From Proteiniphilum saccharofermentans (GTDB lineage Bacteria > Bacteroidota > Bacteroidia > Bacteroidales > Dysgonomonadaceae): DNA of 64,000 nt. Position 1 is the stretch's first letter. Each line of letters begins with the position of its first letter. Positions 1-19,833 of the stretch are shown here, piece after piece. A program made the position numbers and the translations under genes. The DNA is taken from assembly GCF_900095135.1 (NCBI RefSeq), contig NZ_LT605205.1, positions 3,844,001 through 3,908,000 on the forward strand. Reading direction: 5' to 3'. The notes under the pieces are model-generated. The model saw only the letters and a program-made list of their open reading frames with translations, was not told the origin of the DNA and searched no databases.

Positions 1-1139
1 AAGCAAATCGTGATGGACTTAATACGATTGAGTCAGTAAAAAAACTATATTTGGATATCAAAAAGATTTACAATTTATATGGTATGTCTGAAAATATAAG
101 ATTGATAGAAACACCCGGCGGACACTCATACCATGAAATATCCAGAAAAAATATACATGCTTTTTTTATAAAACATCTAATGAATAAGGATGTTACGACT
201 GATGAAGCTGGAGATATCAGTCTTGATGAAAATAATTTGCTTAGCGCAAATGAGTTAAAAGTCTATCTGAACGGAGTCCCTAAGAATGACCGCACTACAA
301 CAATTCAAGATTCATTTATAAAATTGTCACAACCTCCCCAAATATATTCCAAAGAAGAAATGTTTTCACACCGAGATAAGGTGAAGAATTTTTTGACTAA
401 TAAAACATTTGGAGCGTTTCCCAGTGCTGAGACACCTTTTGATAGTAAAATAGAATTTCGTTCACTTGATGGAGCAAAATTTGGATGGAATATACACAGT
501 TTTGTACCTGAAGAAGGTTGGCGGTTAAAAATTAATTTTTACTGGAGACAGGACACAACACAAAGAAAACCTTTATTGATTGTCCTTAAAAACTACGATG
601 AGGAACGCAATGAATCGCAGGGCTTCGTTTCTGAATTAGAAACTGATTGGAATATTGCATATTTTGAACCTCGAGGTATTGGTGAAACTGGTTGGGATCC
701 GGGCCTACAGTGGCATATACGAAGATCTGCAGCTTGGACAGGCAGAACAATCGCTTCAATGCAAGTATATGATCTTCTAAGATGTATAGAATATTGCAGG
801 ACTTTACCGGAAGTTGATCCATTGAAAATCGGGATTGCCGCACAGAATGAAAACGTAGTTGTAGCATTATATGCAGCATTATTAGACAATAAATGCGAAT
901 GGCTCGCACTAAAAAATCCTCCTGCAACACAGGATGTTTCAAGTCAGCAAGATGGCAAAGGATATGCCATTGAAATGCTGAACTGCTTGCGCGTAACTGA
1001 CGTATACCAACTACCAGCCCTAATTTACCCAACAAAAGTTTCATTATTTGGCGATATTCCTAAAAATTATAGCTGGTCCGAAGATCTGATTCGACATTTT
1101 GAAAATACTAACCAAAATGTTTTACTATTGCGAAATTAA
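1..1139 (+). CDS. C-terminal part of a double alpha/beta-hydrolase (acetyl-xylan-esterase-like), cut by the window edge
   Basis: The frame is open from base 3 to the stop at 1137-1139, so the gene starts outside the window. Residues near the left edge (around TPGGHSYH) look like the end of a first hydrolase domain carrying its catalytic His. The rest resembles the second hydrolase domain of roughly 700-residue Bacteroidota esterases, with the segment GRTIASMQVYDLLRCIEY. The nucleophile elbow of this second domain reads GIAAQNENV rather than GxSxG, so it is probably not catalytic. The stop codon overlaps the first bases of the 9-bp flank of the downstream IS. Before the inversion described below, the GH20 gene would have followed this gene in the same direction. 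The exact substrate cannot be told. Confidence 0.6.
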   Translation, partial: ANRDGLNTIESVKKLYLDIKKIYNLYGMSENIRLIETPGGHSYHEISRKNIHAFFIKHLMNKDVTTDEAGDISLDENNLLSANELKVYLNGVPKNDRTTTIQDSFIKLSQPPQIYSKEEMFSHRDKVKNFLTNKTFGAFPSAETPFDSKIEFRSLDGAKFGWNIHSFVPEEGWRLKINFYWRQDTTQRKPLLIVLKNYDEERNESQGFVSELETDWNIAYFEPRGIGETGWDPGLQWHIRRSAAWTGRTIASMQVYDLLRCIEYCRTLPEVDPLKIGIAAQNENVVVALYAALLDNKCEWLALKNPPATQDVSSQQDGKGYAIEMLNCLRVTDVYQLPALIYPTKVSLFGDIPKNYSWSEDLIRHFENTNQNVLLLRN

Positions 1140-1146
1140 ATTCAAT
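1138..1146 (+). repeat. IS flank AAATTCAAT (left side of IS copy 1)
   Basis: Nine bases directly outside the left inverted repeat of IS copy 1. The same nonamer, as its reverse complement, lies outside the left edge of IS copy 2 (13887-13895), not on the other side of copy 1. This is one half of an exchanged target-site duplication. Confidence 0.85.
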
Positions 1147-2457
1147 CATTAGTGGGCACTTAAATAAAAAAATAGTTCTTTGAAATCTTTTGTAGATCGC
1201 AGTTTTGAGAAATTTTAGTTGTGTGACGATTTGAAATGCGATGATTATATTTTACTTTGCCCAAAAGTAAAAATCATGAATCAAGGCAAATATATTTTCG
1301 CGCAGCTTACAGATTTTCTACCACGCAGGGTATTTGACAATATCGTATCCAGACACGATGGAAACAAGAAAGTCCGAAGTTTCACCTGCTGGAACCAGAT
1401 GCTATGCATGATCTTTGGACAATTGACAGCCCGTGACAGTATGCGGGACTTGATGCTGAGCCTGGAAGCCCATCAATCCAAATATTACCATTTGGGACTG
1501 GGGGCAAGCGTAACCCGGACAAATCTGGGTAAAGCCAATCGTAACCGTAGCTATAAAATCTTTGAGGATTTTGCCTATGTGATGATGGACAAGGCCCGTC
1601 AAAGTCATTACAGGGAGGACTTCGAAGTCAAGGTGGACGGGAACGTCTATGCCTTTGACTCCTCCACCATCGACCTGTGCCTGAGTGTCTTCTGGTGGGC
1701 GGAGTTCCGCAAGCACAAGGGAGGCATCAAGTTGCATACATTGTATGACCTGAAGACTTCCATTCCGACTTTCGTGTTGATCACCAGCGCAAAGGTCAAT
1801 GATATGAACGCGATGGATTATCTTCATTATGAATCCGGGAGCTTTTATATCTTCGACCGCGGATACGTGGACTTTGACAGGTTGTACCGGGTGAATGAAT
1901 CCGAAGCCTGGTTTGTCACGCGGGCCAAGAAGAACTTCAAGTTCCGCAGGATGTATTCCCGGGAAGTTGACAAGTCGACGGGCGTGCAATGCGACCAGAT
2001 CGGGAAACTGGAGGGATTCTACCAGCAAAAGGACTATCCCGGCAAACTGCGCAGAATCAAGTATCACGACGTGGAACTGGGCAGGACTTCGTTTTTATAA
2101 CCAATAACATGGACTTGACGGCCGTCGAGATAGCGCTACTGTATAAAAAACGCTGGATGGTTGAGCTGTTCTTCAAATGGATAAAACAACACCTGAAAGT
2201 AAAAAACTTCTGGGGAACGACCATCAACGCCGTTAAAATCCAGTTATATTGTGCTATCATCGCTTACTGTCTGGTAGCCTTGATTGGTTACGAATTGAAA
2301 GTTGAGCGTCCAATCTACGAAATTCTGCAAATACTCAGTATCTCCCTACTGGACAAAACTCCTATAAGAGAGATACTTACGAATTGCGATTACAAAAATG
2401 TCAAAGAGCTCGATTATAAACAATTAAAAATCAACTGGATCTAAGTGTCCAGTAGTG
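1147..2457 (+). mobile_element. IS4-type insertion sequence, copy 1 (1311 bp)
   Basis: The boundaries are set by imperfect terminal inverted repeats, CATTAGTGGGCACTTAAAT on the left and CACTACTGGACACTTAGAT on the right read inward (15 of 19 identical). An inverted copy of exactly the same length lies at 13896-15206. All open frames of the two copies translate identically. The flanks are AAATTCAAT and ATGTTTCAT, so this copy has no matching target duplication of its own. The single gene is an IS4-family DDE transposase split by a frameshift. Confidence 0.9.
1276..2444 (+). CDS. IS4-family DDE transposase, in two frames needing a -1 shift
   Basis: The protein begins at MNQGKYIF (1276); the reading frame is open upstream to 1219 but only from a weak start. 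The first frame ends at 2100 and the second runs to 2444. A -1 shift at about 2087-2097 joins them into roughly 390 residues, normal for the family. Catalytic Asp residues lie in the first frame (AFDSSTID and IFDRGYVDF). The family Y-(2)-R-(3)-E-(6)-K signature (YKKRWMVELFFKWIK) lies in the second, so only the fused product would be active. The first-frame stop TAA directly follows G TTT TTA, a slippery-like but non-canonical heptamer. The same split is present in copy 2. Confidence 0.85.
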
Positions 2458-2466
2458 ATGTTTCAT
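2458..2466 (+). repeat. IS flank ATGTTTCAT (right side of IS copy 1)
   Basis: Nine bases directly outside the right end of IS copy 1. Their reverse complement ATGAAACAT sits at the right edge of IS copy 2 (15207-15215). With the AAATTCAAT pair this shows that the inner flanks of the two insertions have been exchanged. Confidence 0.85.
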
Positions 2467-2486
2467 AATAGGTGATTAATAATAGA

Positions 2487-3452
2487 TCAATGTAAAACTG
2501 GAAAATATACGCATACCTTATCATGCATAGTATATAATCGATATTCATGGTCATCAAACACCAAAATTGGACTGGAAGTATCTCCTTTTACTAGAGGATT
2601 GTCAGGATATTTAGTCCAGTTTATTAGATCTGTGGACATGGCTACTAAGGAAGACCATTCTGCATTTTCTTCTGGATTTGCCCAATTAGGGTTTGTTGAA
2701 CCGTGATAATACATAAAATAGCGGTTATTATATTTTACTATTTGGTTTGCAGCTACAGCACCCTCATCATATTTTTCAGGTCCCATTTTTAACACTGGCT
2801 CATCTTGAATATTCATCCAATTAATTTTATCCTTAGATGTTGCCAACCAGATGCCCAAATCATTTCGTTCGTAAAATAAATACCATGTATTATCTTCAAT
2901 CCAAACAGTAGGCGTTCCATAAGGAGCAGGAATTGTATCACCATTTGTGGTGAAAATGATTAAATTTCCTTGGGAATTCCAATTGATTCCATCTGTAGAT
3001 ATAAGCAAATGTGCAATATCATTTTTACCTTCTGCATACATGTAATAAATTCCATCATCTTTAATCACAAAAATATCTTCGGTCCACTTATCATTAAAAA
3101 TTGGTTGATCCTGGTATCTGCTCCATTTAACACCATCTGTCGATGTTGAATAACCAAGATATTTAATAGATGAGTCTCCTCCATTATATCCTGTATACCA
3201 CATTTTATATATTCCCTCATCTTTTAAGATATAGCCGCGTTCTCTTATATACTTGTCCCATGTATTACTATTAGTACCAGAAAAAATAGGATTTTCCTCA
3301 TATGATCCAAACAATACCATTTGAGGAGGAAATTTATCAGTTATTGATTTTTGAGAATGATATTGACAGGCAAATATTCCTATAAACAAAACCAATATAC
3401 CTAGGTGATATAAATTTGAAAAATATTTCATTATTTTGCTTTTAATGTTCAT
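2487..3452 (-). CDS. Exported five-bladed beta-propeller glycosidase-like lipoprotein (GH43/GH117-like)
   Basis: The product has 321 residues. The N-terminus has a hydrophobic stretch ending in a lipobox-like IFAC at about residue 29, so it is probably a lipoprotein. The body contains repeated blade motifs of the GH43/GH32/GH117 propeller type: ILKDEGIYKMWYTGY, YSTSTDGVKWSRY, VIKDDGIYYMYAE, and STDGINW and STDLINW pairs. These enzymes remove terminal sugars such as arabinose, xylose or anhydrogalactose, and the substrate cannot be predicted. An alternative start at residue 8 (MKYFSNLY) gives a more typical signal peptide. The gene lies last in the minus-strand operon, 151 bp after the aldolase gene, and would have preceded the PIG-L gene before inversion. 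Confidence 0.6.
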   Translation of the reverse strand: MNIKSKIMKYFSNLYHLGILVLFIGIFACQYHSQKSITDKFPPQMVLFGSYEENPIFSGTNSNTWDKYIRERGYILKDEGIYKMWYTGYNGGDSSIKYLGYSTSTDGVKWSRYQDQPIFNDKWTEDIFVIKDDGIYYMYAEGKNDIAHLLISTDGINWNSQGNLIIFTTNGDTIPAPYGTPTVWIEDNTWYLFYERNDLGIWLATSKDKINWMNIQDEPVLKMGPEKYDEGAVAANQIVKYNNRYFMYYHGSTNPNWANPEENAEWSSLVAMSTDLINWTKYPDNPLVKGDTSSPILVFDDHEYRLYTMHDKVCVYFPVLH

Positions 3453-3603
3453 ACTAATAGTTTATTTTTAACTTCATTGTAAATTTCCCAATGCTATTAT
3501 ATAAATAATCAGCTTATTTTCAGATAGTATATGATTCTCTGTGCTTGACAGTCTCTAAATTTCTCAATGACCTGTAGCGATTTCAGTCTCTCATGCTGTC
3601 TGT

Positions 3604-4416
3604 TTAGCAGGTCGCTTTAAATTTGTCTACCAACAAATCCACAACCTGAGCAGTAGCTTTTGGGAATACTTTACGTAAATCAATTTCATCAGTATTGAAT
3701 AGTATCTGTTTTAATGCTTTCATGAAGGTGTTTTTTATATCCGTAGCCAGATTCACTTTTGTGATTCCATTCCGAATTGCCTCTTGCAGCATACTATCCG
3801 GAATTCCGGAGCTTCCATGCAGTACAAGAATGGTATCCACGGCTGCATGTATCTCTTTCAACCTTTCAATATTAAGATTTGGTGCAGATTTATAGAAACC
3901 ATGTGATGAGCCAATTGCAATTGCCAGCGCGTTAATTCCTGTCTGTTTTACAAAATTTGTAGCCTCTTCTACCGTTGTATAAACTCCACTCTGCTCCTGT
4001 CCTAGTTTAGCAATATAGCCCAGTTCAGCTTCCACATTTGCACCATGTTTTGACGCTTCTTCCACTACTCTGCTTGTGATTTCCACATTTTTATCAAATG
4101 GTTCATTGCTTGCATCAATCATCACTGAGTCAAATCCCTGTGTTAGACACTTTTTCACCAGTTCTAAAGAATCTCCGTGGTCTAGATGTATCCAACCTTC
4201 TATCTTAAAACTATCCAAAGCTTGACGTGCAAGAACAACAGCTTCTTTCAAACCAATATATTCTATGGAGCTGCGTGTTAGTTGCAGGATAACCGGCGAA
4301 TTGCATTCTGAAGCAGCAAGAAGTATTCCCTGTAAAGTTTCCAAGTTATAGAAGTTGGTTGCAAGGATTGCTTCATGTTTTAATTGATATTCTTTTAATT
4401 TCTCTTGTAAGGTCAT
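3604..4416 (-). CDS. gatY: Class II ketose-bisphosphate aldolase (tagatose-bisphosphate aldolase, GatY/KbaY-like)
   Basis: The product has 270 residues, slightly under the usual 280-290. It would cleave tagatose-1,6-bisphosphate (or fructose-1,6-bisphosphate) to dihydroxyacetone phosphate and glyceraldehyde-3-phosphate in the cytoplasm. Class II zinc and substrate motifs are visible: HLDHGDS (about residue 77), VEAELGYI (about 129), GSSHGFY and LHGSSGIP for the two later His regions, and VNLATD near the C-terminus. It starts one base after the stop of the PfkB-type kinase gene, so the two are co-transcribed. The neighbouring kinase and GatZ-like protein favour tagatose-bisphosphate as substrate, but sequence alone does not exclude fructose-bisphosphate. 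Confidence 0.8.
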   Translation of the reverse strand: MTLQEKLKEYQLKHEAILATNFYNLETLQGILLAASECNSPVILQLTRSSIEYIGLKEAVVLARQALDSFKIEGWIHLDHGDSLELVKKCLTQGFDSVMIDASNEPFDKNVEITSRVVEEASKHGANVEAELGYIAKLGQEQSGVYTTVEEATNFVKQTGINALAIAIGSSHGFYKSAPNLNIERLKEIHAAVDTILVLHGSSGIPDSMLQEAIRNGITKVNLATDIKNTFMKALKQILFNTDEIDLRKVFPKATAQVVDLLVDKFKATC

Positions 4417-4417
4417 G

Positions 4418-5374
4418 TTATTCGATTTTTAGTTCCTGGTTAAATTTTTTCCTTGCGATATCCTTTATTTTTTCCTTAGAAGTGAATGCTCCCGTTCCAC
4501 CTGCTGTGGTTGTGTTGATCGCACCTGTTAGATTGCCTGTGATTTGAGATTCTTTATGAGATCTCCCCCTAACAAATGAATGGATAAAACCAGCGTTAAA
4601 ACTATCCCCAGCACCAATTGCATCAACTACTTCATTGTTTATAAAAGCATCCAGTATGATAGGCTCTTTTTGTTTTTGTAATAAAATGGATCCTCTTCTA
4701 CCACATTTTATCACACATAAATTGATATGTGGTTGAATTTTACTCATCGCTTCTTCTAGTGTGTCAGACTGTGTAATGTGTTTTAATTCGGTCTCATTGG
4801 GCAGAAATATATCAACATAAGGTAGAGTTGTCTTGTAATCCATATCCCATTCTTCTTTAGGGTCCCATTGTGGATCAAGCGAAGTAGTCACATTATTTTC
4901 TCGTGCGAATTGTAAAATAGCAAGAAGATCTCTTTTAATTCCTGATTGCAAGAAAATCGAAGAAAGATGAATATGTCTTGTTTGAGTAAAAACTGTTTTG
5001 TCAATATTGTCAAAAGTCATAAAGGCCATTGCTCCTAGATACGTTATATTCGCACGGTCTTCATTATAATTCAGGCAAATGGTGGCGCCAGAGGAATAGG
5101 TGTCAGAATAAATGAGCATAGAGGTGTCCACCCCTCTTTTTTTAAGGGATGACTCAATTAGCTTTCCAAAAGTATCCTTTCCAATCATCCCCACAAAACC
5201 GGTTTTAGAACCTAAGCAGGCAATATTAGCTGCAAATATTGCTGTAGAGCTGCCCAAAGTAAGAAGCATATCTTTGGCAAATACCTCTTTGCCGATTTCG
5301 GGAGTTCTTTCAATTCCATTCAGGATCAGATCCACGTTCAATTCACCTATCGCTACAACATCATATTTTATCAT
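4418..5374 (-). CDS. PfkB-family sugar kinase, probable tagatose-6-phosphate kinase
   Basis: The product has 318 residues, normal for the ribokinase/PfkB family. Family motifs are an N-terminal AIGELNVDLIL, the GSSTAIFAANIACLG segment, and the C-terminal ATP/anion-hole signature DAIGAGDSFNAGF (about residue 250) with the catalytic Asp. It would phosphorylate a ketose-6-phosphate at C1. The position between a GatZ-like gene (4-bp ATGA overlap) and a GatY-like gene (1-bp gap) points to tagatose-6-phosphate, although PfkB substrate specificity cannot be read from motifs. It is part of the agaS-gatZ-kinase-gatY series that forms a complete lower pathway for galactosamine-6-phosphate. Confidence 0.75.
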   Translation of the reverse strand: MIKYDVVAIGELNVDLILNGIERTPEIGKEVFAKDMLLTLGSSTAIFAANIACLGSKTGFVGMIGKDTFGKLIESSLKKRGVDTSMLIYSDTYSSGATICLNYNEDRANITYLGAMAFMTFDNIDKTVFTQTRHIHLSSIFLQSGIKRDLLAILQFARENNVTTSLDPQWDPKEEWDMDYKTTLPYVDIFLPNETELKHITQSDTLEEAMSKIQPHINLCVIKCGRRGSILLQKQKEPIILDAFINNEVVDAIGAGDSFNAGFIHSFVRGRSHKESQITGNLTGAINTTTAGGTGAFTSKEKIKDIARKKFNQELKIE

Positions 5375-6600
5375 GTGAGATAGTTATTAAGATTTACTAA
5401 ATTAAATGCATAGAAATATTTGTCCATATCGCGTTCGATTCGTGAAAGTACAATTTCTTCCGCATTTATTCCGTTTTTTTTCAGATTTTCATAGAGACGG
5501 TAACGTGCTACAACAGCTTCAGGATTTTGCCAGATATAGCGACATCCCGTTTTTATCAGCCATTCTTTCCTTTCAGTTGAGATCTTTTCAAAGGGGATAT
5601 TTTTTTCTTCGGGTTGCAGCCATTTCTGCCAACGATTGGAATTCAGCACCAATCTCCATAGAGTCTTTTTCATATTTGACAGGACGGCAATTCTTTTTTT
5701 CTCAAACATTTTACGTTCTAGTTCCTCTAATTCAACCAATGCATCATATTCACTGATTGTGAATTCAGGCCCCACATTGGCTGCTCCAATCCCGCATAGG
5801 GGATAGTCTTGTGGATTCAAAACGCCATCGGTATAATGTCCTTTAATATAACTGCCAAATTGTTTTACTTTTTTTGTGAGTGTTGTGGCTACTTCTTTGT
5901 CGAATGTGTTGGTGTGCAAATCCGTCCCCACTTTACCTACAATAAAACAGGGCCACACATCGGAGAGTCCTTCCTCTTTCAATCCCCTTTTTAAGAGCTC
6001 AATAAATGTATCGAAGGTATTTTCATCAGCTAATCCTCCATGTACTTCTTCGGTCCCTACCTCATATGAGATAATGGGATGGTTATTTTGACGCCTAAAG
6101 TTCTCACTATGTTTAATCAGCTCTACCGTTCTTTGAACTACTACCTTTATATCAATAATTTCTCCTTCAGGAATAAAAATATCTACCGTGGGGTCTACAT
6201 GAATCAGATCATAGCCTGCTTCAATAGCATCCTCAAAAGATTTTTTTACTCCATCCATTGCTCTTTGCAATTTCCATTTCTCCAGTGACTGTTTATCTTT
6301 TAGCCAGGGACCCCCATGATCGATTGCAACAATATAGGGTCCTTCGAAATTGACGGATCTCGCTTCATCTTCCAGCATTTTAGTGAATTCATTCTGCGTA
6401 ATTCCCACATACCCTTTGTCAGAGTCAATTTGATTAAGTGTAGCAGCGAATTTTATGGGAGCATTGTTTCGTTTTGCTGCCCGAAAAGCTGCCTTAATAA
6501 CGGATATGGAGTTTGGACATACAGCAAAAAGTGTACGAGGAATGTTTGTTTCAGCTTTTAACTCCTCTATTCTTTTTAAAATATTTTCTGTTTTTGGCAT
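5371..6600 (-). CDS. gatZ: GatZ/KbaZ-family protein (tagatose-bisphosphate aldolase accessory subunit)
   Basis: The product has 409 residues, close to the family length of about 420. The fold is a TIM barrel. Recognisable segments are FAVCPNSISVIKAAF, VAIDHGGPWLKDK (about residue 92), LIHVDPTVD, SYEVGTEEVHGG and GHYTDGVLNPQDYPLCGIG. Family members support activity and stability of the catalytic GatY/KbaY aldolase. Some reports assign them a kinase-like role in tagatose-6-phosphate use. It overlaps the downstream kinase by 4 bp and follows agaS by 15 bp, so the genes form one operon. The assignment to this family is firm; the biochemical role is inferred from context. Confidence 0.8.
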   Translation of the reverse strand: MPKTENILKRIEELKAETNIPRTLFAVCPNSISVIKAAFRAAKRNNAPIKFAATLNQIDSDKGYVGITQNEFTKMLEDEARSVNFEGPYIVAIDHGGPWLKDKQSLEKWKLQRAMDGVKKSFEDAIEAGYDLIHVDPTVDIFIPEGEIIDIKVVVQRTVELIKHSENFRRQNNHPIISYEVGTEEVHGGLADENTFDTFIELLKRGLKEEGLSDVWPCFIVGKVGTDLHTNTFDKEVATTLTKKVKQFGSYIKGHYTDGVLNPQDYPLCGIGAANVGPEFTISEYDALVELEELERKMFEKKRIAVLSNMKKTLWRLVLNSNRWQKWLQPEEKNIPFEKISTERKEWLIKTGCRYIWQNPEAVVARYRLYENLKKNGINAEEIVLSRIERDMDKYFYAFNLVNLNNYLT

Positions 6601-6615
6601 TTTTATTTTTATTAA

Positions 6616-7740
6616 TCAATAAATTGTTACACCTTCTACCACCCTTGATATTTTACCACTTTCAGATGGATTATCAGGATCAAGATTCAGGTCAATGGAT
6701 TTAAATAAACCCAGTAATTGACCGATTAGTACGTACAGTATTACATCATATGCAGTTTGATCGTACTTTTCCGGAATCATTTCCAGATCAAATTCAATAT
6801 TGTCTATTTGTTTTTTACTTTGTGCAACATATATTTGGATTGCAGGCTTCTCTTGTCGATTAATTTGTAGAATAAGATCTCGTTCATATTGGAATGTTTT
6901 TTCGTCGTCGGATAAAAGGTAAACGAGTACTGTTTTTTCATTTATCACTGCTTTGGGACCATGTCGGAATCCCAGAAATGAATCGAACAGACAAATTACT
7001 TTGCCGTCTGTCAACTCCTGTAATTTTAGATGACATTCTTCCGCGATACCTTTTCTTTCCCCAGACCCCAAAAATACTGCCCGTTGAAATTCACTGGATG
7101 CTATTTTGAAAATCAGATCGGCGTAGCCAGTAATCATAAATTCACCCTTTCCGGACAATCTATCTATTTCGTTTTTTTTCAATGAAATTTTCTTTATATC
7201 AAAGATTAACATCGAAGCCAGAAGCAGGGAAGTAAAACTGCTTGTCATGGCAAGACCTTTATCATTTGTATCCGGAGGCAGTATCAATAAGAGCGCATTT
7301 TTGTTAACTGCCCTTTTCGCTAATTCTCCCGAATCATTACAGGTTATCATAATATGGGAAATATTTTTTCCGCAAATTGAATTAGCCCTATCTACTGCAG
7401 CGATACTTTCCGGGCTGTTGCCCGATCGAGCTAGAGATACTAGCATATATTTTTTGTTTCTTTGAAAGAAAGTATTTGGATGAGTTGCGACGTCAGTAGT
7501 CGGAACGGATTTAATATTATATATTTTTTGTTTTGGTAACATAAACGTCATAATATTGCCAATGAACGAAGATGTACCGGCACCTGTAAATATTATTATC
7601 ACATCATCAGTGTAAAATTCAGACATAAAATCGGATATTTCTTGTTCTTTTTCTGCAATGATGGAGTAGGTTTCCTTCCACAATGTTGGTTGTTGACAGA
7701 TTTCACGATACGTATGCCAATTGAGAGAATCAATGTTCAT
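6616..7740 (-). CDS. agaS: AgaS-family galactosamine-6-phosphate deaminase/isomerase
   Basis: The product has 374 residues with two SIS domains. It contains FTGAGTSSFIG (about residue 52), VSLARSGNSPESIAA (first SIS), VFLGSGERKGIAEECHLK and SFLGFRHGPKA (second SIS). The characteristic AgaS C-terminus ends SGKISRVVEGVTIY. AgaS converts galactosamine-6-phosphate to tagatose-6-phosphate and ammonia in the cytoplasm. Together with the three following genes this is a full path to triose phosphates. No amino-sugar kinase, PTS or NagA/AgaA-type 6-phosphate deacetylase is visible nearby. Deacetylation may therefore happen outside the cell, or these steps may be encoded elsewhere. A palindrome array lies 160-200 bp upstream. 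Confidence 0.85.
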   Translation of the reverse strand: MNIDSLNWHTYREICQQPTLWKETYSIIAEKEQEISDFMSEFYTDDVIIIFTGAGTSSFIGNIMTFMLPKQKIYNIKSVPTTDVATHPNTFFQRNKKYMLVSLARSGNSPESIAAVDRANSICGKNISHIMITCNDSGELAKRAVNKNALLLILPPDTNDKGLAMTSSFTSLLLASMLIFDIKKISLKKNEIDRLSGKGEFMITGYADLIFKIASSEFQRAVFLGSGERKGIAEECHLKLQELTDGKVICLFDSFLGFRHGPKAVINEKTVLVYLLSDDEKTFQYERDLILQINRQEKPAIQIYVAQSKKQIDNIEFDLEMIPEKYDQTAYDVILYVLIGQLLGLFKSIDLNLDPDNPSESGKISRVVEGVTIY

Positions 7741-7776
7741 AATAATTTATTATTTTCGTTAAACTTATATTCAATA

Positions 7777-7807
7777 CAAAAATAGCTTTCTGCGAAAGAT
7801 TCGAAAT
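7777..7807 (-). promoter_or_regulatory. Candidate promoter/operator of the agaS operon
   Basis: On the minus strand TATTTTTG (7777-7784) matches the Bacteroidota -7 consensus TAnnTTTG, about 37 bp from the agaS start. No TTTG is found at the usual -33 spacing. Instead that stretch holds a CTTTC-tgc-GAAAG palindrome (7786-7798) and a degenerate ATTCGAAAT (7799-7807). The latter resembles the three ATTTCGAAAT sites further upstream, so a repressor bound here would cover the promoter. Confidence 0.4.
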
Positions 7808-7900
7808 TGGCAATATATATGTTGTAAAACATAACCCTTTGCGTGTTCTTTTAAATGATAGTAAATCAATGTATTATGAAATTAGATGTATTTTTTTTTA

Positions 7901-7935
7901 ATTTCGAAACATTTCGAAATACAACATTTCGAAAT
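7901..7935. promoter_or_regulatory. Array of three ATTTCGAAAT palindromes, probable operator
   Basis: The sites are at 7901-7910 (last base C), 7911-7920 and 7926-7935; the latter two are perfect 10-bp palindromes. They lie between the agaS start and a DeoR-family regulator remnant. DeoR-type sugar repressors such as AgaR and GlpR bind repeated TTTCG-containing sites, so this is most simply the operator of the lost regulator. No protein binding is shown by sequence alone. Confidence 0.5.
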
Positions 7936-7962
7936 AACCGTTGTGGATTATATTTATTATGA

Positions 7963-8282
7963 AAAAGATACTATTTTTGTAGAAAACAGATAGATATGAG
8001 AAATTTTTCAATTGAGAAAGGTATCTCACACCCAATGTTGAGGAGACACACATTTATCAAACAATGATATCAATGGCTAAAGAATGTATTGCTGTATTTG
8101 ATACTTCCAAGTTTGACAAGAGAAGTTTTTGTTTTATCGCTCGGGTGAATGATATTGATGCCATTGTCACGGATTCACAGAGTTTCATATCAATGAATTT
8201 CAAAAAGTGCAAGGCAGTTTTTTCTCTCGGTAAAATAATTCCAACTCCTTACTCTATTGGTGTAACTTCTATCAACAAGTGA
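7963..8282 (+). pseudogene. Remnant of a DeoR-family transcriptional regulator
   Basis: Two frames together encode the C-terminal sugar-binding part of a DeoR-type regulator. The first (7963-8067) gives FSIEKGISHPML. The second (8064-8282) gives AKECIAVFDTSKFDKRSF and NDIDAIVTDS. These match the DeoR consensus pattern of GIs.P, then D.SKF..R, then IDT.ITD. The DNA-binding N-terminus is absent, the frames are joined only by a shift near 8064, and a stop precedes 7963. The 3' end runs into the opposite-strand GH36-like gene. It is divergent from agaS and beside the palindrome array, as expected of a local repressor. The operon may therefore now be unrepressed. Confidence 0.6.
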
Positions 8283-10417
8283 TTAAAAAAATCGATATTA
8301 ATTTCAGCGATTGGTCCGTTCACTATTCCCAAATCTTTCTCATCTACATAATTGTAAACTCGGTATGTTTTATTCTTAAGTCCTCGCAATTCAATTGGAC
8401 CATTCCATTCGTCAGCATAAAAGGCATAGTAAAAATTTTCATTTTTTTGGATCACATGTGATTCAGGCTTTTCGTAAATGATATCGTAAAGGTTCAGATA
8501 ATCTCCTTTACTGAGCATTTTTTCATGGTAAAGTTTTATCCATTTTTGCCAATGTTGTTCGCGATCGCTTGTCAACTGCATATTTTCAGGACCCTCAGGC
8601 CAGGTAAACTTAGTTCCGATCACACCTCCAGCCCCCATGGATGTTGCAAAATCTTCTCCTACTTTAGCGGTATCGCTTTTGTCATTAATATCCACATCTA
8701 ATCTAATATGTTCCACATGATCGGTAAAGATGGGAGCATTTGACCCCCAAAGTGCCTTCATTGATTTCACTCTTCTTCGAACTTGTTCAACACTTGTTGG
8801 ATCAGAAACTACAGGTTGGTCGATATAAACTGATTGGTAAAAATCCTGCGTTGTTCCACAATTACAGATTTCAGTTACAGAAGACGGATTGATTGATTTC
8901 GAGGTTTCATAAATAACCTTTAATAACTTAGGAAGATCTTGGTAAGACTCCGCAGGATCCTTATGATTATGTGCCGGGTTATAACATGGAGGAACCACAT
9001 AATAGGCATCTAACTTATGGCCATCGAAACCCCATTCGTCAATAAAACGTGTAGTCAATTCTTTTATATATTCCTGAACATCTGGTAAGCTTGGACAAAA
9101 CTGGTACATGTCACGGTTATCACGTGAATAATTTCCTTTTTCATCCATTATGAGCCACTCCGGATGCTTTTTTGCTATTTCTGCTAATCCCGGATCCACC
9201 GAACCATCCCATACAGGTATGACTTCAGGTTGAACAGGGGTTGGTGCCCACCAAATTTTCACTTTAAACCCAAGATCATGTATTGATTTCACGAACTCTT
9301 TTACTTGCTTTTCTCCTTCGGGGAAGGTATAATTACGTGGATTCCAGTCTCCATATTTATCCCACCAACGATCATCTATTACGATCCATTTAATTTCTAA
9401 ATCTCTTAATTTAGGAATTACCCCGTAGATATCATTAAGTGTGAAATCGGTTAAATATCCCCAACTACACCAAATTGCTTCATGTGCGCCCATAGAAGGA
9501 GCAGGTTGTTTTACTCCTTGATCAGCCATGAGATTTGAATAAGTTCTTAGAGGGTCAAAATAATCCATAGAATGTGTGATTACGGCTCCTTTTATTGTTT
9601 TTAGACTTTCACCGGGTAATAAGTCCTGTTCCGTTTCATTTAGAATAGACACACTCACCCTGTTATCATTTTCAACTTTTACAGGAAATGAAACAAGTTG
9701 TGGTTTTGTTTCAATATGTGAGATGGCAAGTCCAATATCCTGATTCCATAAATCTACAAAGGGTATTCCCCCTCCTGTCTTAGTATCTGGTTGAACACCC
9801 ATCCAATTTTTTTGCTGAAATCCTTCTTTTATTGGAAATATATAATCTTTTCCCCAAGAAACTGAAGCTCCCTGGAAAGAATAAAAATCGAATGGTTTAT
9901 TCACAGAATTAAAAACTGATGCATCCAATTTGAAATAATTTGATATCGTTTTATCCACAGAGATACTTTCCTCTCCCAGATTTTTATATGATGCACTTAT
10001 GATTGCTACATTGGGATACTTGTCATACAATTCAATGGATAACGTTTTCTCCAAAAGGATCCCCGTTTCCGGTTCTGAAACGCCATTCACTCTAAGTTGT
10101 CTTCCTTTGCCAAAATATGAATCAATTGACTCAATAGCGATTTGTTTATAATCGACTATAAATTTTGTTACATCTTTACCATCAACTCTGATAAAATGAC
10201 TTGGCAGGGTTAGACTATCGACTGAATTCAATGGCTTTTCTCCACCTTTATAAAAAACAAGAAGATTCATTTCGGAATCCAGCTTAAGTTCAATCTCTCC
10301 GTTTTTTATCCAGATGTCACCTTTTTCTGAATATGTGAAATCTTTATTTTTATTGGAACATGATGGAAAAATCAAGCAAATAAACAGTAGCTGTAATAAT
10401 AGATCAAATTTTCTCAT
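8249..10417 (-). CDS. Lipoprotein glycoside hydrolase, GH36/GH27-clan (alpha-galactosidase or alpha-GalNAcase-like)
   Basis: The product has 722 residues. A signal peptide with lipobox FPSC (Cys20) directs it to the envelope. An N-terminal beta-sandwich (about 25-300) precedes a TIM barrel with EAIWCSWGY (about 313), WIVIDDRWWDKYGDW, KIWWAPTP, and GFDGHKLDAYY, in which Asp470 fits the clan nucleophile. VVSDPTSVEQVRRRV follows, in which Asp539 fits the acid/base. A small C-terminal beta domain follows. It would release alpha-linked galactose or N-acetylgalactosamine. The aga-type genes nearby favour a galactosamine substrate, but that is context only. The 3' end overlaps the DeoR remnant on the other strand, and the amidohydrolase gene lies 4 bp upstream. 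Confidence 0.7.
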   Translation of the reverse strand: MRKFDLLLQLLFICLIFPSCSNKNKDFTYSEKGDIWIKNGEIELKLDSEMNLLVFYKGGEKPLNSVDSLTLPSHFIRVDGKDVTKFIVDYKQIAIESIDSYFGKGRQLRVNGVSEPETGILLEKTLSIELYDKYPNVAIISASYKNLGEESISVDKTISNYFKLDASVFNSVNKPFDFYSFQGASVSWGKDYIFPIKEGFQQKNWMGVQPDTKTGGGIPFVDLWNQDIGLAISHIETKPQLVSFPVKVENDNRVSVSILNETEQDLLPGESLKTIKGAVITHSMDYFDPLRTYSNLMADQGVKQPAPSMGAHEAIWCSWGYLTDFTLNDIYGVIPKLRDLEIKWIVIDDRWWDKYGDWNPRNYTFPEGEKQVKEFVKSIHDLGFKVKIWWAPTPVQPEVIPVWDGSVDPGLAEIAKKHPEWLIMDEKGNYSRDNRDMYQFCPSLPDVQEYIKELTTRFIDEWGFDGHKLDAYYVVPPCYNPAHNHKDPAESYQDLPKLLKVIYETSKSINPSSVTEICNCGTTQDFYQSVYIDQPVVSDPTSVEQVRRRVKSMKALWGSNAPIFTDHVEHIRLDVDINDKSDTAKVGEDFATSMGAGGVIGTKFTWPEGPENMQLTSDREQHWQKWIKLYHEKMLSKGDYLNLYDIIYEKPESHVIQKNENFYYAFYADEWNGPIELRGLKNKTYRVYNYVDEKDLGIVNGPIAEINIDFFNHLLIEVTPIE

Positions 10418-10421
10418 AGTT

Positions 10422-11549
10422 TTAGGTTTTCATTTTTTTGAATTTTGGGAATAGCTTCTCTGCGTTTTTAAAGTAGATTTTATCTATTATTTCACGCGGA
10501 AGTTTTAATCCTTTGATCTCACCATCAACTTCCCACATAGTGATTGACTCATCTGTTGTGAAGAACTTCCAGTCGGTTAGCCACACATTATGTAAATGTT
10601 CTTTTAATTTTTTGGGATCATTATCATTTTCGGCACTATCGCTATTATCTGTACCATACATTATTCGATCCTGATATTTAATAATAAAATTGCGCACTTT
10701 ATCCCAATCTTTTTGCGACAGAGCTGCAATATGGCAGATTCGCGCAGCCATTTCCAGGGTCATATTAGGGAATTGTTCTAAATGCTCGGTCATTAGATCA
10801 ATACTCCACTCCATGCTCCCGAGATGTGCTCCCACAAATATAAGATTGGGATGTTTTTCCAGCATATGATCTCGGGCTTCAAGCTGGTCTTCATATGAAG
10901 GAAATTCCGGATGTAAATACATGTGGTATTCCGGATTAGATTTAAAATACTTTTTATCGTTGTTTACAGTCATCTCTTCAATGGGGAGCCAACAGTTTTT
11001 TGGTTCACCCAAATGGCCATAAAGTGGGATACCATTATCTTCTAGAAAAGAAAAAACCGGGTCGAATTTGGGATCATCAATCATAATAAATTCCCCATTT
11101 TTATCTTTTTCAACCATACCTATGTTTTTCCATACTTTTACACCAATAGCACCTTTGTCTATTGACTCTTTTATAAGAGTAATTGTCTTGTTATGCCAGC
11201 CTTCATCATCCCAATCGTCTAAAGTAAAGGTTGTTAAATATGAAATGTATCTTGGAAATTGGTTTATTTGATAAAGTGAAAATTTCTCCTGTTCATAAAT
11301 GGTGATATCATCCCACGCGTTTGTATTTACGGTGAGGATCCGGAAGTTATCCGAAATAGCCTGTTCCATAAACGCAGTTCTTGTGGTATTAATGTGACAA
11401 TGAATATCTATCTTATTTACTTTTTCAAAGTCTGATTCAGTGTAATAATCGTTCTTTTCACCACCCCTATTACAAGCAGAAACGAATGTTAATAGTATAA
11501 TTAACGTTATGGCGGCTATTTCCATCAAAATATAATTTTTTGTCTTCAT
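10422..11549 (-). CDS. Amidohydrolase-2-family lipoprotein (metal-dependent TIM-barrel hydrolase)
   Basis: The product has 375 residues. A hydrophobic N-terminus ends in VSAC (Cys26), a lipobox. The barrel shows the PF04909 pattern: IDIHCHIN (metal-binding HxH), IGVKVWKNIG with the position of the usual Lys, YGHLGEP, VGAHLGSMEW and MYGTDNSD for the later His and Asp ligands. Family members are hydrolases or decarboxylases of small ring or acyl compounds. No substrate is known for the exported Bacteroidota forms. It sits between a GH36-like and a GH20 gene with gaps of 4 and 10 bp, so it is co-transcribed. A role in removing an acyl group from a released sugar is a guess. Confidence 0.6.
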   Translation of the reverse strand: MKTKNYILMEIAAITLIILLTFVSACNRGGEKNDYYTESDFEKVNKIDIHCHINTTRTAFMEQAISDNFRILTVNTNAWDDITIYEQEKFSLYQINQFPRYISYLTTFTLDDWDDEGWHNKTITLIKESIDKGAIGVKVWKNIGMVEKDKNGEFIMIDDPKFDPVFSFLEDNGIPLYGHLGEPKNCWLPIEEMTVNNDKKYFKSNPEYHMYLHPEFPSYEDQLEARDHMLEKHPNLIFVGAHLGSMEWSIDLMTEHLEQFPNMTLEMAARICHIAALSQKDWDKVRNFIIKYQDRIMYGTDNSDSAENDNDPKKLKEHLHNVWLTDWKFFTTDESITMWEVDGEIKGLKLPREIIDKIYFKNAEKLFPKFKKMKT

Positions 11550-11559
11550 ATTTATAATT

Positions 11560-13785
11560 CTAATTGTCCAGAACTTTTTCTTTATAATACCTTATATAAT
11601 CCTTTAATCTTTCCAAATATCCTTCCATATTCAATAATTGTTCATCATAGATTAAGTATGACATATCTGGCACTCTATTCGCAAAATGACGGGCACGATC
11701 CTGCTGATGGAAAAACTCTTTTCCACGGGTACTTAAACCTTTTGGTAAACGAGTAATTTCCCATATCCTCACCAAATCATTATAAACTTTCGTTCTGCGT
11801 TCAATACTTGACTCGATCAACTCCTTAGCCTTCAATAGTTGTTCGTGGGCCATTGCTTTATCTGTAAAGGTTAAATTATGTGCCCGGGTTATTATACTCT
11901 CTAAGCTCGAAAGGTCCAGATAAGTACTGCAAGTATGACTAATCAATTCAGCAATAGTTCTGTATAATTCAAAATCATAGTCGTTTTTTGGATTTAACCT
12001 TTTATTGTTTTCGATTATTTGTAATGCTCTCTCCATTTTTTGCAATGTTTCTCTCGATTCTTCCACTTTATTCTGATACCGGGCATTCCAATATGGGTTA
12101 TATTCCATGTTATCGTTTCGAAGCATGTCAGGTATATGGGTTTTGCCTATCTCACCATGGTGCCATACATTCCGCTCAAATGTCCAGGAAAAATAATATG
12201 CCCCTTCATTTAAAAGAGAATATAATTCTTCCATGTCCATTACATTTTTACCATAATAATTCTTGTAAAATGTATTTTCAAACTCTTGCAAAGTGGGGTA
12301 ACTACCATTCCATGAATAAGCCGCAGCGGTAGCAAATCTGAGCATCCACATTTGGTTGTGCAATCCGGAATCGTCCCAAGATGTAGTTATCATGCCATCA
12401 AAAACTCCTGAAACTGCAGCTGAAGTCAAAAATTGATAAGAATTCTCCAAGCTCCCAGTGGTTTTCATTTTTCCACTGTTTCTCTCCCTATATTTATAAG
12501 GAAGAAAAAGCGGTTCGATACCGGGATTAGGATCGTAGGCGTAAACCTCGTATCCAAGATCTTTTGATCTTTTAGCATGCCGATAATCTGGAGTATCATA
12601 GTTGTAACTTTCTGTGAGCACCAAACCTTTAGAAGGAGTGAAGTTTTTAATTGGTGATGGATTGTGTTCCCATCCCATAGGTGTTTCCCATACCATGACC
12701 TTTCTTCCTGCTTTCTTAAGATGTTCAGCCGCTTTTTTTACAAACAGATGATAGACTCCGCTACGCCCGATTTCTTCGGCTTTTGCATTGCATTCAGGAC
12801 AAGCGCATAATTCGAAAGTTTCATCAGAACCAATATGAATATAATCAGAGCCAGGTGTTGCTTCAATCGCTTCTTCCCATAAATCAAAAAGCAAATCGTA
12901 AGTACCATCCTTTAAGGGACAAAATTCCCAGTTTGAGGCTGGAATTTCGCGGAGATGTTTGTATTGTGGCCATTTAAGAATAAAGCTTACATGCCCAAGT
13001 CCCTGAACTAACGGTATAAGTTCTATATGATATTTTTGTGCATAGCGTGTAATCTCCTGCATCTCTCCGGTAGTAAAGGCGCCAGGTGCACCAATCTCAG
13101 GATGGCTATTATAAGCCAGCTTATCTTCCCATTCCCATACTAGCTGGTTAATTTTATACCGCGCTAGATCTCTTATAAATTTCTCAACATAAGATATTTT
13201 ATCCTGATGATGCTTAGTATCATAATGAACCGCACGTTTGTTAATATCCGGCCAATCTTCAATAACCAATCCCGGGATAATATAACCGTTACTATTTTTT
13301 TTAATTAGCTGAAGTAAAGTTTGTGTACCATAGAAGAGACCCTCTTCACTTTTTGCCTGAATAATTAATTCATCACTGGATGTAGTGATTCTATATCCTT
13401 GCTCTTTTAGCGATTCAGGAACCTTGTTACGTGTAAGGACAATAGATTTACTCCCTTTTATACCTGTTTCAGATAATATTGCTTCAATATTCCATTCAGT
13501 TTTTAAGGTAAATACTAACTCTTCAGCTGCAAATTTATCTGCTTCTGAATTATCCTTATCAGTTACAATAATTACTTCTCCATTAATAATGAAATCATCA
13601 CCTCCCAATTGAACGTTCTGAGGAAATGGAATTAGATACAAACCTTTGTCATATAGCTCACTAGAGTGTAAACTAATACTTGAAAACAATATTGTCAAAA
13701 TAATTATTATTGGACTTAAAATTTGACTTTGATATTCTTTCAATTGTGCAGATTTTTGTTTAGTTGCTTTACTTTGATTATACAT
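11560..13785 (-). CDS. Exported GH20 beta-N-acetylhexosaminidase
   Basis: The product has 741 residues. A membrane-spanning segment at about residues 24-38 acts as a signal peptide. A GH20 N-terminal domain (about 45-175) includes EGLFYGTQTLLQLI. The catalytic barrel follows with HIGSDETFELCACPEC, in which Asp321-Glu322 are the polarising and acid/base pair of substrate-assisted catalysis. A long helical C-terminal region (about 545-741) follows. It cleaves terminal beta-linked GlcNAc or GalNAc. It is first in the minus-strand run. In the uninverted arrangement it would follow the esterase gene by about 110 bp. A small Cys-rich CACPEC stretch right after the catalytic pair may bind a metal or form a disulfide. 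Confidence 0.85.
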   Translation of the reverse strand: MYNQSKATKQKSAQLKEYQSQILSPIIIILTILFSSISLHSSELYDKGLYLIPFPQNVQLGGDDFIINGEVIIVTDKDNSEADKFAAEELVFTLKTEWNIEAILSETGIKGSKSIVLTRNKVPESLKEQGYRITTSSDELIIQAKSEEGLFYGTQTLLQLIKKNSNGYIIPGLVIEDWPDINKRAVHYDTKHHQDKISYVEKFIRDLARYKINQLVWEWEDKLAYNSHPEIGAPGAFTTGEMQEITRYAQKYHIELIPLVQGLGHVSFILKWPQYKHLREIPASNWEFCPLKDGTYDLLFDLWEEAIEATPGSDYIHIGSDETFELCACPECNAKAEEIGRSGVYHLFVKKAAEHLKKAGRKVMVWETPMGWEHNPSPIKNFTPSKGLVLTESYNYDTPDYRHAKRSKDLGYEVYAYDPNPGIEPLFLPYKYRERNSGKMKTTGSLENSYQFLTSAAVSGVFDGMITTSWDDSGLHNQMWMLRFATAAAYSWNGSYPTLQEFENTFYKNYYGKNVMDMEELYSLLNEGAYYFSWTFERNVWHHGEIGKTHIPDMLRNDNMEYNPYWNARYQNKVEESRETLQKMERALQIIENNKRLNPKNDYDFELYRTIAELISHTCSTYLDLSSLESIITRAHNLTFTDKAMAHEQLLKAKELIESSIERRTKVYNDLVRIWEITRLPKGLSTRGKEFFHQQDRARHFANRVPDMSYLIYDEQLLNMEGYLERLKDYIRYYKEKVLDN

Positions 13786-13886
13786 ATTTACTTAATTGAT
13801 AGTTTTCAACTTATTTATATTAAACCTTTATATTTCAATATATACTGATACCTATTAGAATTTATTTGTCTGAGTTATTTTTTATA

Positions 13887-13895
13887 ATTGAATTT
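13887..13895. repeat. IS flank ATTGAATTT (left side of IS copy 2)
   Basis: Reverse complement of AAATTCAAT, the nonamer at the left of IS copy 1 (1138-1146). It ends exactly at the IS boundary. The other edge of copy 2 carries a different nonamer. Confidence 0.85.
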
Positions 13896-15206
13896 CACTA
13901 CTGGACACTTAGATCCAGTTGATTTTTAATTGTTTATAATCGAGCTCTTTGACATTTTTGTAATCGCAATTCGTAAGTATCTCTCTTATAGGAGTTTTGT
14001 CCAGTAGGGAGATACTGAGTATTTGCAGAATTTCGTAGATTGGACGCTCAACTTTCAATTCGTAACCAATCAAGGCTACCAGACAGTAAGCGATGATAGC
14101 ACAATATAACTGGATTTTAACGGCGTTGATGGTCGTTCCCCAGAAGTTTTTTACTTTCAGGTGTTGTTTTATCCATTTGAAGAACAGCTCAACCATCCAG
14201 CGTTTTTTATACAGTAGCGCTATCTCGACGGCCGTCAAGTCCATGTTATTGGTTATAAAAACGAAGTCCTGCCCAGTTCCACGTCGTGATACTTGATTCT
14301 GCGCAGTTTGCCGGGATAGTCCTTTTGCTGGTAGAATCCCTCCAGTTTCCCGATCTGGTCGCATTGCACGCCCGTCGACTTGTCAACTTCCCGGGAATAC
14401 ATCCTGCGGAACTTGAAGTTCTTCTTGGCCCGCGTGACAAACCAGGCTTCGGATTCATTCACCCGGTACAACCTGTCAAAGTCCACGTATCCGCGGTCGA
14501 AGATATAAAAGCTCCCGGATTCATAATGAAGATAATCCATCGCGTTCATATCATTGACCTTTGCGCTGGTGATCAACACGAAAGTCGGAATGGAAGTCTT
14601 CAGGTCATACAATGTATGCAACTTGATGCCTCCCTTGTGCTTGCGGAACTCCGCCCACCAGAAGACACTCAGGCACAGGTCGATGGTGGAGGAGTCAAAG
14701 GCATAGACGTTCCCGTCCACCTTGACTTCGAAGTCCTCCCTGTAATGACTTTGACGGGCCTTGTCCATCATCACATAGGCAAAATCCTCAAAGATTTTAT
14801 AGCTACGGTTACGATTGGCTTTACCCAGATTTGTCCGGGTTACGCTTGCCCCCAGTCCCAAATGGTAATATTTGGATTGATGGGCTTCCAGGCTCAGCAT
14901 CAAGTCCCGCATACTGTCACGGGCTGTCAATTGTCCAAAGATCATGCATAGCATCTGGTTCCAGCAGGTGAAACTTCGGACTTTCTTGTTTCCATCGTGT
15001 CTGGATACGATATTGTCAAATACCCTGCGTGGTAGAAAATCTGTAAGCTGCGCGAAAATATATTTGCCTTGATTCATGATTTTTACTTTTGGGCAAAGTA
15101 AAATATAATCATCGCATTTCAAATCGTCACACAACTAAAATTTCTCAAAACTGCGATCTACAAAAGATTTCAAAGAACTATTTTTTTATTTAAGTGCCCA
15201 CTAATG
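13896..15206 (-). mobile_element. IS4-type insertion sequence, copy 2 (1311 bp, inverted)
   Basis: Same length and the same terminal repeats as copy 1 in reverse orientation. Every open frame translates identically. Its outer flank (15207-15215) pairs with the inner flank of copy 1, and its inner flank pairs with the outer flank of copy 1. This rules out a simple composite transposon insertion and shows an inversion of the DNA between the copies. Confidence 0.9.
13909..15077 (-). CDS. IS4-family DDE transposase, copy 2, same frameshift
   Basis: Mirror of the copy 1 gene. The first frame stops at 14253 and the second runs from the shift region to 13909. The shift site, the G TTT TTA run and the following TAA are all conserved. 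The Asp residues are in the first frame and the Glu of the YREK-type signature in the second. Two copies at two different target sites share one split. Either the split allele was able to move (programmed -1 shifting or help in trans) or recombination has made the copies identical. Confidence 0.85.
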
Positions 15207-15215
15207 ATGAAACAT
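15207..15215. repeat. IS flank ATGAAACAT (right side of IS copy 2)
   Basis: Reverse complement of ATGTTTCAT at 2458-2466. It completes the exchanged pair of target-site duplications. It lies 129 bp upstream of the preferred PIG-L start. Confidence 0.85.
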
Positions 15216-15344
15216 ATTAAATAAATAATGAATTAAATATTTATCAATATGAAAAAAAATAATCCTATCTTATCGAGACAAAATCATTTAGTGATATCCA
15301 GAGACATAGCAGAAACATCTATAACCACTAAATATCATATATCT

Positions 15345-18542: not shown

Positions 18543-18612
18543 GTAACTACTCAGGTACTCCGCCCATAGGCAGAGAACCATGAATCCGTCAATAACTATG
18601 TACAGCTCGACG

Positions 18613-19803: not shown

Positions 19804-19833
19804 ACCTGCGCAAAGAACGGTAAAATAATCGAC

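What the first reader, a model, noticed from the sequence alone, without database searches (positions are those of the whole stretch)
1138..15215. An 11.4-kb catabolic operon inverted by recombination between two IS copies, shown by exchanged target-site duplications
IS copy 1 is flanked by AAATTCAAT and ATGTTTCAT; inverted copy 2 is flanked by the reverse complements of the same two nonamers in the same left-right order. Each insertion should have one duplicated nonamer on both sides. The exchange is exactly what recombination inside two inverted copies leaves. All genes inside run opposite to all genes outside, and re-inverting gives one co-oriented catabolic series. The repeats are 1311 bp and apparently identical, so the switch could still be reversible and could turn expression of the operon on or off relative to the upstream promoter.
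Basis: seen in the sequence. Interest (0 to 1): 0.85.

Follow-up and report, generated by a model that had tools for sequence, protein, structure and literature searches.

The report
Gene block flipped between inverted transposons
In a biogas-reactor bacterium a block of eight sugar-degradation genes appears to have been turned around by a pair of identical mobile elements, and a second block in the same chromosome shows the same scar; this is a known kind of event, and the scar does not by itself say how the block was flipped or that it works as a switch.

Summary
Two identical 1311-bp IS4-family copies (1147-2457 +, 13896-15206 -) carry reciprocally exchanged 9-bp target duplications; the four other full genomic copies have normal ones. 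Inside are eight co-directional genes resembling a GalNAc/tagatose catabolic set. By exact size the genome is Proteiniphilum saccharofermentans M3/6.

No relative found carries this locus in a readable order, so its ancestral orientation is untested here. But a second IS4-like element in the same genome has the same footprint around dnaE. There the close relative G001 is IS-free and un-inverted, and one healed junction matches it 773/800 with a single target nonamer.

Exchanged duplications do not prove homologous recombination: one-step replicative (or sister-copy) intramolecular transposition leaves the same structure. Both elements having a close inverted pair is unlikely for independent insertions (about 0.001-0.003, post hoc), so I lean to the one-step route. 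Assembly error remains possible (Illumina mate pairs only).

The on/off switch idea is not supported: each gene block keeps the same IS end upstream in either orientation.

The parts
1138..1146 (+). 9-bp target sequence a, AAATTCAAT (left of IS copy 1; overlaps the esterase stop codon at 1137-1139)
1147..2457 (+). IS4-family copy 1, 1311 bp, terminal inverted repeats CATTAGTGGGCAC / CACTACTGGACAC; transposase reading frame broken by a 1-bp difference from the intact copy at G000:C1:3289618
2458..2466 (+). 9-bp target sequence c, ATGTTTCAT (right of IS copy 1)
2487..3452 (-). GH130/GH43-like protein, last gene of the inverted block
3604..4416 (-). class II fructose/tagatose-bisphosphate aldolase
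4418..5374 (-). PfkB-family sugar kinase
5371..6600 (-). GatZ/KbaZ-like tagatose-bisphosphate aldolase subunit
6616..7740 (-). AgaS-family SIS-domain sugar isomerase/deaminase
8249..10417 (-). melibiase/GH31-like glycoside hydrolase
10422..11549 (-). amidohydrolase (Amidohydro_2)
11560..13785 (-). GH20 protein, first gene of the inverted block
13887..13895 (-). second copy of target sequence a (ATTGAATTT on +)
13896..15206 (-). IS4-family copy 2, 1311 bp, identical to copy 1
15207..15215 (-). second copy of target sequence c (ATGAAACAT on +)
51..1139 (+). 3' part (in window) of the 674-aa acetyl-xylan-esterase-like protein whose gene begins about 885 bp left of the window; left neighbour of the inversion
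15249..16226 (+). PIG-L family deacetylase, right neighbour of the inversion

Best explanation
An 11.4-kb block (2458-13895) of a co-directional polysaccharide-utilisation locus is inverted between two identical IS4-family copies. Shown: the exchanged 9-bp duplications and the opposite gene direction. Inferred: the block once ran on + between the esterase and the PIG-L gene. Inferred as most likely: the inversion arose in one step, when a single IS copy at one of the two sites attacked the other site on the same chromosome. This replicative or sister-copy intramolecular transposition flips the DNA in between and leaves a second, inverted IS at the target, so each IS carries one old and one new nonamer. 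The outcome is a fixed or slowly reversible rearrangement, not a dedicated switch.
For: Exchanged nonamers, with 4 of 4 other full copies normal. The outer flanks of the IS-block-IS unit differ (AAATTCAAT, ATGAAACAT), so it is not a composite-transposon insertion. Re-inverted, the gaps would be 108 bp (esterase to GH20) and 62 bp (GH130-like to PIG-L), usual for an operon. A second IS4-like element (5 copies) has an inverted pair 8.9 kb apart with exchanged nonamers AACTGACAA/TAATTGTAT. There the predicted healed HTCS-dnaE site aligns 773/800 to G001 with ATACAATTA once, and G001 has HTCS, dnaE and the MacB genes all on -. In the 4 of 16 fetched relatives that keep the MacB-cluster genes, dnaE is on their strand, opposite to this genome. 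An inverted pair within 12.75 kb in both elements has probability 0.0012 under independent random insertion (0.0029 within 20 kb). Copies within each pair are identical, as expected for one-step duplication though not diagnostic. Tn5, made of IS50, an IS4 subgroup, gives replicative inversions in vivo (PMC2723962, passages). Codon-position-3 skew of the block gives a log-likelihood ratio of 1.7 for native +, above all 24 overlapping runs of eight - genes and within the range of 22 such + runs; a lean, not proof.
Against: The identical copy L003 sits elsewhere with its own normal duplication, so identity does not single out one-step duplication. Tn10 does not make replicative inversions (PMC2723962). 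Both window copies have a broken transposase frame, so the enzyme would have to come from elsewhere or the break came later. The proximity argument is post hoc, its threshold set at the observed spacing, and assumes uniform insertion; local hopping followed by recombination would also give close pairs. GC skew alone favours native - orientation (log-likelihood ratio -5.2), and a spurious + ORF (18580-20013) was in its + background. In distant relatives in-out gene pairs were 16 same to 8 opposite strand, non-independent and partly double-counted. At pair 2 the MacB-side nonamer AACTGACAA is absent from the matching stretches of G001 and G038 (0 and 0), which are diverged there.
Confidence: 0.5

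Rival explanations
1. Two independent IS insertions in opposite orientation, each with its own 9-bp duplication, followed by RecA-type homologous recombination between the 1311-bp copies. The block could then flip back and forth at a low rate.
For: Gives exactly the same flanks. Exchanged duplications were read this way for Galileo in Drosophila (PMC2775673, passages). Copies of this IS look as if they have exchanged sequence: two haplotypes differ at 14 sites in 156-477 and 1061-1194 but at none between 478 and 1020, apart from the frame-site indel.
Against: Needs two low-copy insertions within 13 kb and inverted, in two elements independently (0.001-0.003). In 2 of 2 close inverted pairs examined the duplications are exchanged, whereas free flipping would give about half (weak, n=2).
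Confidence: 0.3
2. Assembly error: the real chromosome has the block on + with normal duplications, and the 11.4-kb contig between two collapsed repeats was placed backwards.
For: The genome was built from an Illumina MiSeq 8-kb mate-pair library with Newbler 2.8 and in-silico gap closure; no long reads are mentioned (PMC5684752 section 7). Identical copies and a shared frameshift would fit consensus gap filling. A second block has the same pattern.
Against: 8-kb mates can span a 1.3-kb repeat and fix contig direction (reasoning; reads not seen). Other IS copies are mostly assembled with normal duplications: 4 of 6, 2 of 5 and 5 of 5 in three elements, the rest being the two exchanged pairs and one orphan. 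Does not explain why both elements have a close inverted pair.
Confidence: 0.17
3. No inversion: the block was always on - and the nonamers match by chance or by target preference.
For: GC skew at codon position 3 of the block (+0.084) resembles - genes of the region (+0.080). No relative shows the order at this locus.
Against: Two exact reciprocal 9-mers, not shared with other copies. TA skew (+0.012) resembles + genes (+0.006) and not - genes (+0.136). The equivalent pattern at pair 2 is an inversion relative to G001.
Confidence: 0.03

Closest known systems
Tn5/IS50 replicative inversion and adjacent deletion (PMC2723962, passages seen)
   Same: IS50 is an IS4-family subgroup (PMC2266710, passages) and the window element matches the IS4-family model. 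A second copy appears at the target and the DNA between is inverted. One further copy here (3581235-3582545) has unmatched flanks, as an adjacent deletion would leave.
   Different: Seen here only as a genomic scar, in Bacteroidota, for single IS copies and not for a composite transposon; no experiment.
Intramolecular replicative transposition of IS26/IS6 family (PMC7986276, passages seen)
   Same: Inversion bracketed by the original and a new inverted IS copy, each with one original and one target flank.
   Different: Different IS family; 8-bp duplications.
Galileo-mediated Drosophila inversion 2z3 by ectopic recombination (PMC2775673, passages seen)
   Same: Opposite copies with exchanged target duplications, normal duplications at other copies, single target site in un-inverted chromosomes.
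   Different: There the copies were chimeric, which identified recombination; here the copies are identical, so that test is silent.
Bacteroidota invertible promoters (recalled, no call)
   Same: Invertible DNA near polysaccharide genes.
   Different: Those, as recalled, use short inverted repeats, a dedicated recombinase and a promoter in the flipped piece; no such recombinase was found among the ORFs scanned.

Membership tests
IS4 family insertion sequence | DDE transposase matching the IS4-family model | tested here: met
   NF033592 177.8 bits over cut-off 115 for the first ORF; PF01609; intact 408-aa ORF in copy L004
IS4 family insertion sequence | target duplications of about 10 bp (8-13 over the subgroups seen) and, in most subgroups, 5'-CA ends (PMC2266710, passages) | tested here: met
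   9-bp duplications in 4 of 6 copies, exchanged in the other 2; ends CATTAG/CACTAC; empty site in G001
IS4 family insertion sequence | YREK signature | not tested
   A Y-R-E-K-like stretch is visible in the ORF, judged by eye only
IS-mediated inversion with exchanged target duplications | inverted copies with reciprocal exchange, normal duplications at other copies | tested here: met
IS-mediated inversion with exchanged target duplications | un-inverted, IS-free arrangement in a relative | tested here: inconclusive
   Window locus: no informative relative. Second pair: order met in G001 and G038, one nonamer seen, the other not
Inversion by homologous recombination | chimeric IS copies | tested here: inconclusive
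   Both copies identical, no informative sites
Replicative (one-step) inversion | immediate ancestor with a single IS at one site | not testable with these tools
   One genome per species is held; no such strain found
Composite transposon | direct target duplication at the outer ends of IS-block-IS | tested here: not met
   Outer nonamers AAATTCAAT and ATGAAACAT differ
Dedicated invertible phase switch | a site-specific recombinase nearby and a promoter that changes with orientation | tested here: not met
   No site-specific recombinase family among 45 window ORFs scanned, not every ORF and not beyond the window on the right; same IS end upstream of each block in both orientations

The most novel reading that the evidence does not exclude
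IS4-family elements of Bacteroidota carry out replicative intramolecular transposition in nature: in one chromosome two different elements left one-step replicative inversions around a sugar locus and around dnaE, and a third copy left an adjacent-deletion-like scar. This would be a natural counterpart of the 'Tn5 paradox' (heading in PMC2723962: conservative in vitro, replicative products in vivo).
Probability: 0.4. Interest if true: 0.5.

Novelty: new member of a known kind. Interest (0 to 1): 0.35.

Why it matters
The footprint is a clean, base-level record of an IS flipping an operon-sized block. With the second case, where a close relative shows the ancestral order, this genome gives two natural examples in which the old question of whether IS4-family elements replicate as they transpose can be tested. 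It also warns that exchanged target duplications, which can be read as proof of recombination, do not separate the two routes, and that short-read assemblies need checking at such loci.

Tried and rejected
Composite transposon: rejected, outer flanks differ. Ancestral order from relatives at the window locus: led nowhere. The melibiase-like gene is in 6 of 39 genus genomes counting this one, at 42% identity or less in the others; 8 loci in genome contigs, 7 of them at 63-67%; the esterase was in 1 of 101 family genomes, this one (E<=1e-60); GH20 in 2 of 101 including this one (E<=1e-60) and 6 of 393 order genomes including this one (E<=1e-150). In the stretches fetched from MAGs with homologues neither the esterase-GH20 nor the GH130-like-PIG-L junction was seen. 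Strand co-orientation there: 16 same, 8 opposite at >=40% identity; 8 and 6 at >=50%. Skew test: leans to native + in sum but GC alone leans to native -; at pair 2, whose native strand is -, the inner genes' skew was not clear either. Relatives at pair 2 that do not help: 12 of 16 lack the flanking cluster; two of these (G022, G030) have 31-34% hits to a 224-aa cluster ORF on the strand opposite to dnaE, and G030 a 70% DUF4143 hit also opposite. Duplication survey of further IS groups: group B 5 of 5 normal (9-10 bp); groups C to F (16 copies) gave no consistent duplications at the boundaries used and were left out of the counts. Adjacent deletion at 3581235-3582545: G001 matches from the exact right end, but 2.1 kb to the left of the IS has no match in the 18-kb G001 stretch, so only suggestive. 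Three related copies in G028 lie in direct orientation within 25 kb, and my boundaries gave no clear duplications for them. Paper searches found no paper and 61 and 64 one each, not on the point.

Slips: my labels for G121, G333 and G473 were shifted by one locus because one stretch did not exist; one search uses the right ones. Distances printed used a wrong segment end; one search gives the right ones. Boundaries were refined. The + ORF 18580-20013, used, is probably not a gene: the - strand there is an IS66 fragment.
Full report
What was checked. The window lies at 3,844,001-3,908,000 of a 4,414,963-base single-contig genome. That size is the one printed for Proteiniphilum saccharofermentans M3/6 (LT605205) in PMC5684752 (passages and section 7 seen); the identification rests on this exact match. 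The inverted repeat is real: 1311 bp, identical, at 1147-2457 (+) and 13896-15206 (-).

The footprint. In IS orientation copy 1 is flanked by AAATTCAAT and ATGTTTCAT, and copy 2 by ATGTTTCAT and AAATTCAAT. Four other full copies elsewhere in the genome each have one direct 9-bp duplication, 4 of 4. For one of these (3585100) the close relative G001 shows the empty site with a single nonamer. So 9 bp is what this element duplicates, and the two window copies have swapped partners.

What is inside. Eight genes on -: GH20, amidohydrolase, melibiase/GH31-like, AgaS-type isomerase, GatZ-like, PfkB kinase, class II aldolase, GH130-like. AgaS, GatZ/KbaZ, a PfkB kinase and a class II aldolase together resemble the N-acetylgalactosamine/tagatose route; that pathway reading is inferred from family names. 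Outside on + are a TonB-receptor (SusC-type) gene, a SusD-type gene, an esterase-like gene, PIG-L, oxidoreductases and two sulfatases. Re-inverted, all run on +, with gaps of 108 and 62 bp at the healed junctions. IS pieces outside on - are an IS66 fragment (18613-19803) and an IS21-type element (40178-42403).

A second case in the same genome. A related element (67% identical over a 200-base match) has five identical copies. Two have normal duplications, one (3581235-3582545) has unmatched flanks, and two, at 4164472-4165782 (-) and 4174728-4176038 (+), have exchanged nonamers. The block between them holds a MacB/FtsX permease gene, a DUF4143 ATPase and dnaE. I compared dnaE surroundings in 16 of the 35 other genus genomes with dnaE. 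Twelve lack the flanking cluster (two have weak opposite-strand hits, see Tried and rejected). The four that keep it (G001, G013, G038, G010) all have dnaE on the same strand as the MacB cluster, opposite to this genome. In G001 the order is HTCS, dnaE, MacB, MacB2, all on -, and the IS end motif is absent from the 40-kb stretch. The predicted healed HTCS-dnaE site aligns to G001 over 800 bases with 773 identities and one gap, with ATACAATTA once. G038 aligns over that junction at 81% and over the MacB junction at 74%. The other nonamer, AACTGACAA, is not in the G001 or G038 stretch, which is diverged there. So in this genome the exchanged-duplication footprint does mark an inversion relative to relatives (or an assembly that says so).

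The window locus itself could not be tested this way; relatives either lack it or have the genes shuffled. Strand skew: the summed log-likelihood ratio is 1.7 in favour of native +, above all 24 overlapping runs of eight - genes and within the range of 22 such + runs, but GC skew alone gives -5.2, for native -. I call it a lean only.

How it arose. Two routes give the same flanks. Homologous recombination between two prior insertions is one. The other is intramolecular replicative transposition, or a hybrid insertion using ends of sister copies; the Galileo paper calls the latter's outcome 'strikingly similar' except that copies are identical instead of chimeric (PMC2775673). The IS6 review describes one original and one target flank on each copy (PMC7986276). 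A paper on Tn5 reports replicative inversions in vivo and contrasts Tn10, which lacks them (PMC2723962). Here the copies are identical, but so is a third copy elsewhere, and gap filling may have evened them out, so identity is weak evidence. The stronger hint is position: each of two low-copy elements has exactly one close pair, inverted and exchanged. Under random independent insertion both would have an inverted pair within 12.75 kb with probability 0.0012 (0.0029 within 20 kb). This is post hoc. I therefore lean to the one-step route without excluding recombination.

Assembly. The genome was made from 8-kb Illumina mate pairs, Newbler and in-silico gap closure. Such mates can orient an 11.4-kb contig across a 1.3-kb repeat, but reads were not available to me, and a back-to-front contig would give the same swapped nonamers. 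I keep 0.17 for this.

Function. The switch idea is weak. Each IS has its right (transposase 3') end towards the block and its left end outwards. Whichever way the block lies, GH20 keeps an IS right end just upstream and PIG-L keeps the left end of copy 2. Only transcription that crosses the whole IS could differ. A Bacteroidota-type promoter-like match (consensus recalled) points outward near each IS left end, at 15063 (+) towards PIG-L and at 1290 (-) towards the esterase; five such matches occur in the window, and no chance estimate was made. It would act the same in both orientations. No site-specific recombinase family was found among 45 window ORFs scanned.

Verdict. A genuine-looking IS-mediated inversion, one of two in this genome; known in kind; mechanism open between two routes; no evidence of regulation.

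Noticed in passing
G000:C1:4164472-4176038 (L035 2472-14038): Second inverted pair of a different IS4-like element with exchanged 9-bp duplications around MacB, DUF4143 ATPase and dnaE; un-inverted and IS-free in relative G001.
   Followed up: yes
window 1147-2457 and 13896-15206; L003, L005, L006: Five of six copies share a 1-bp difference that breaks the transposase frame; only L004 (3289618) is intact. The break occurs in both sequence haplotypes, so it is either old and spread by conversion, mobilised in trans, or an artefact of repeat collapse in assembly.
   Followed up: partly
alignment positions 478-1020 of the element: Two haplotypes differ at 14 sites outside this stretch but at none within it apart from the frame-site indel, suggesting exchange between copies or consensus filling.
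   Followed up: partly
G000:C1:3581235-3582545 (L032): Orphan copy of the second element with unmatched 9-mers; its right flank matches G001 from the exact IS end, its left flank does not: possibly an adjacent deletion.
   Followed up: partly
window 15063-15091 (+) and mirror at 1290 (-): Bacteroidota-type promoter-like motif (consensus recalled) near the IS left end, pointing outward, towards PIG-L in copy 2.
   Followed up: no
window 18613-19803 (-), 40178-42403 (-), 59713-60762 (+); L026 11136-12029 (+): Further IS genes in the same sugar-utilisation region: IS66 fragment, IS21 type (IstB, rve), another rve-domain gene, and an HTH_21/rve (IS3-like) gene after SusD.
   Followed up: no
G000:C1:4034261-4037823 and 4059126-4062688: A 3.56-kb block with two transposase genes repeated directly 24.9 kb apart, 99.9% identical.
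   Followed up: no
L131, L134, L137-L139, L146-L147: Distant relatives keep several of the same genes (GH20, aldolase, AgaS, esterase, PIG-L) in different orders, so this gene set is often reshuffled.
   Followed up: partly
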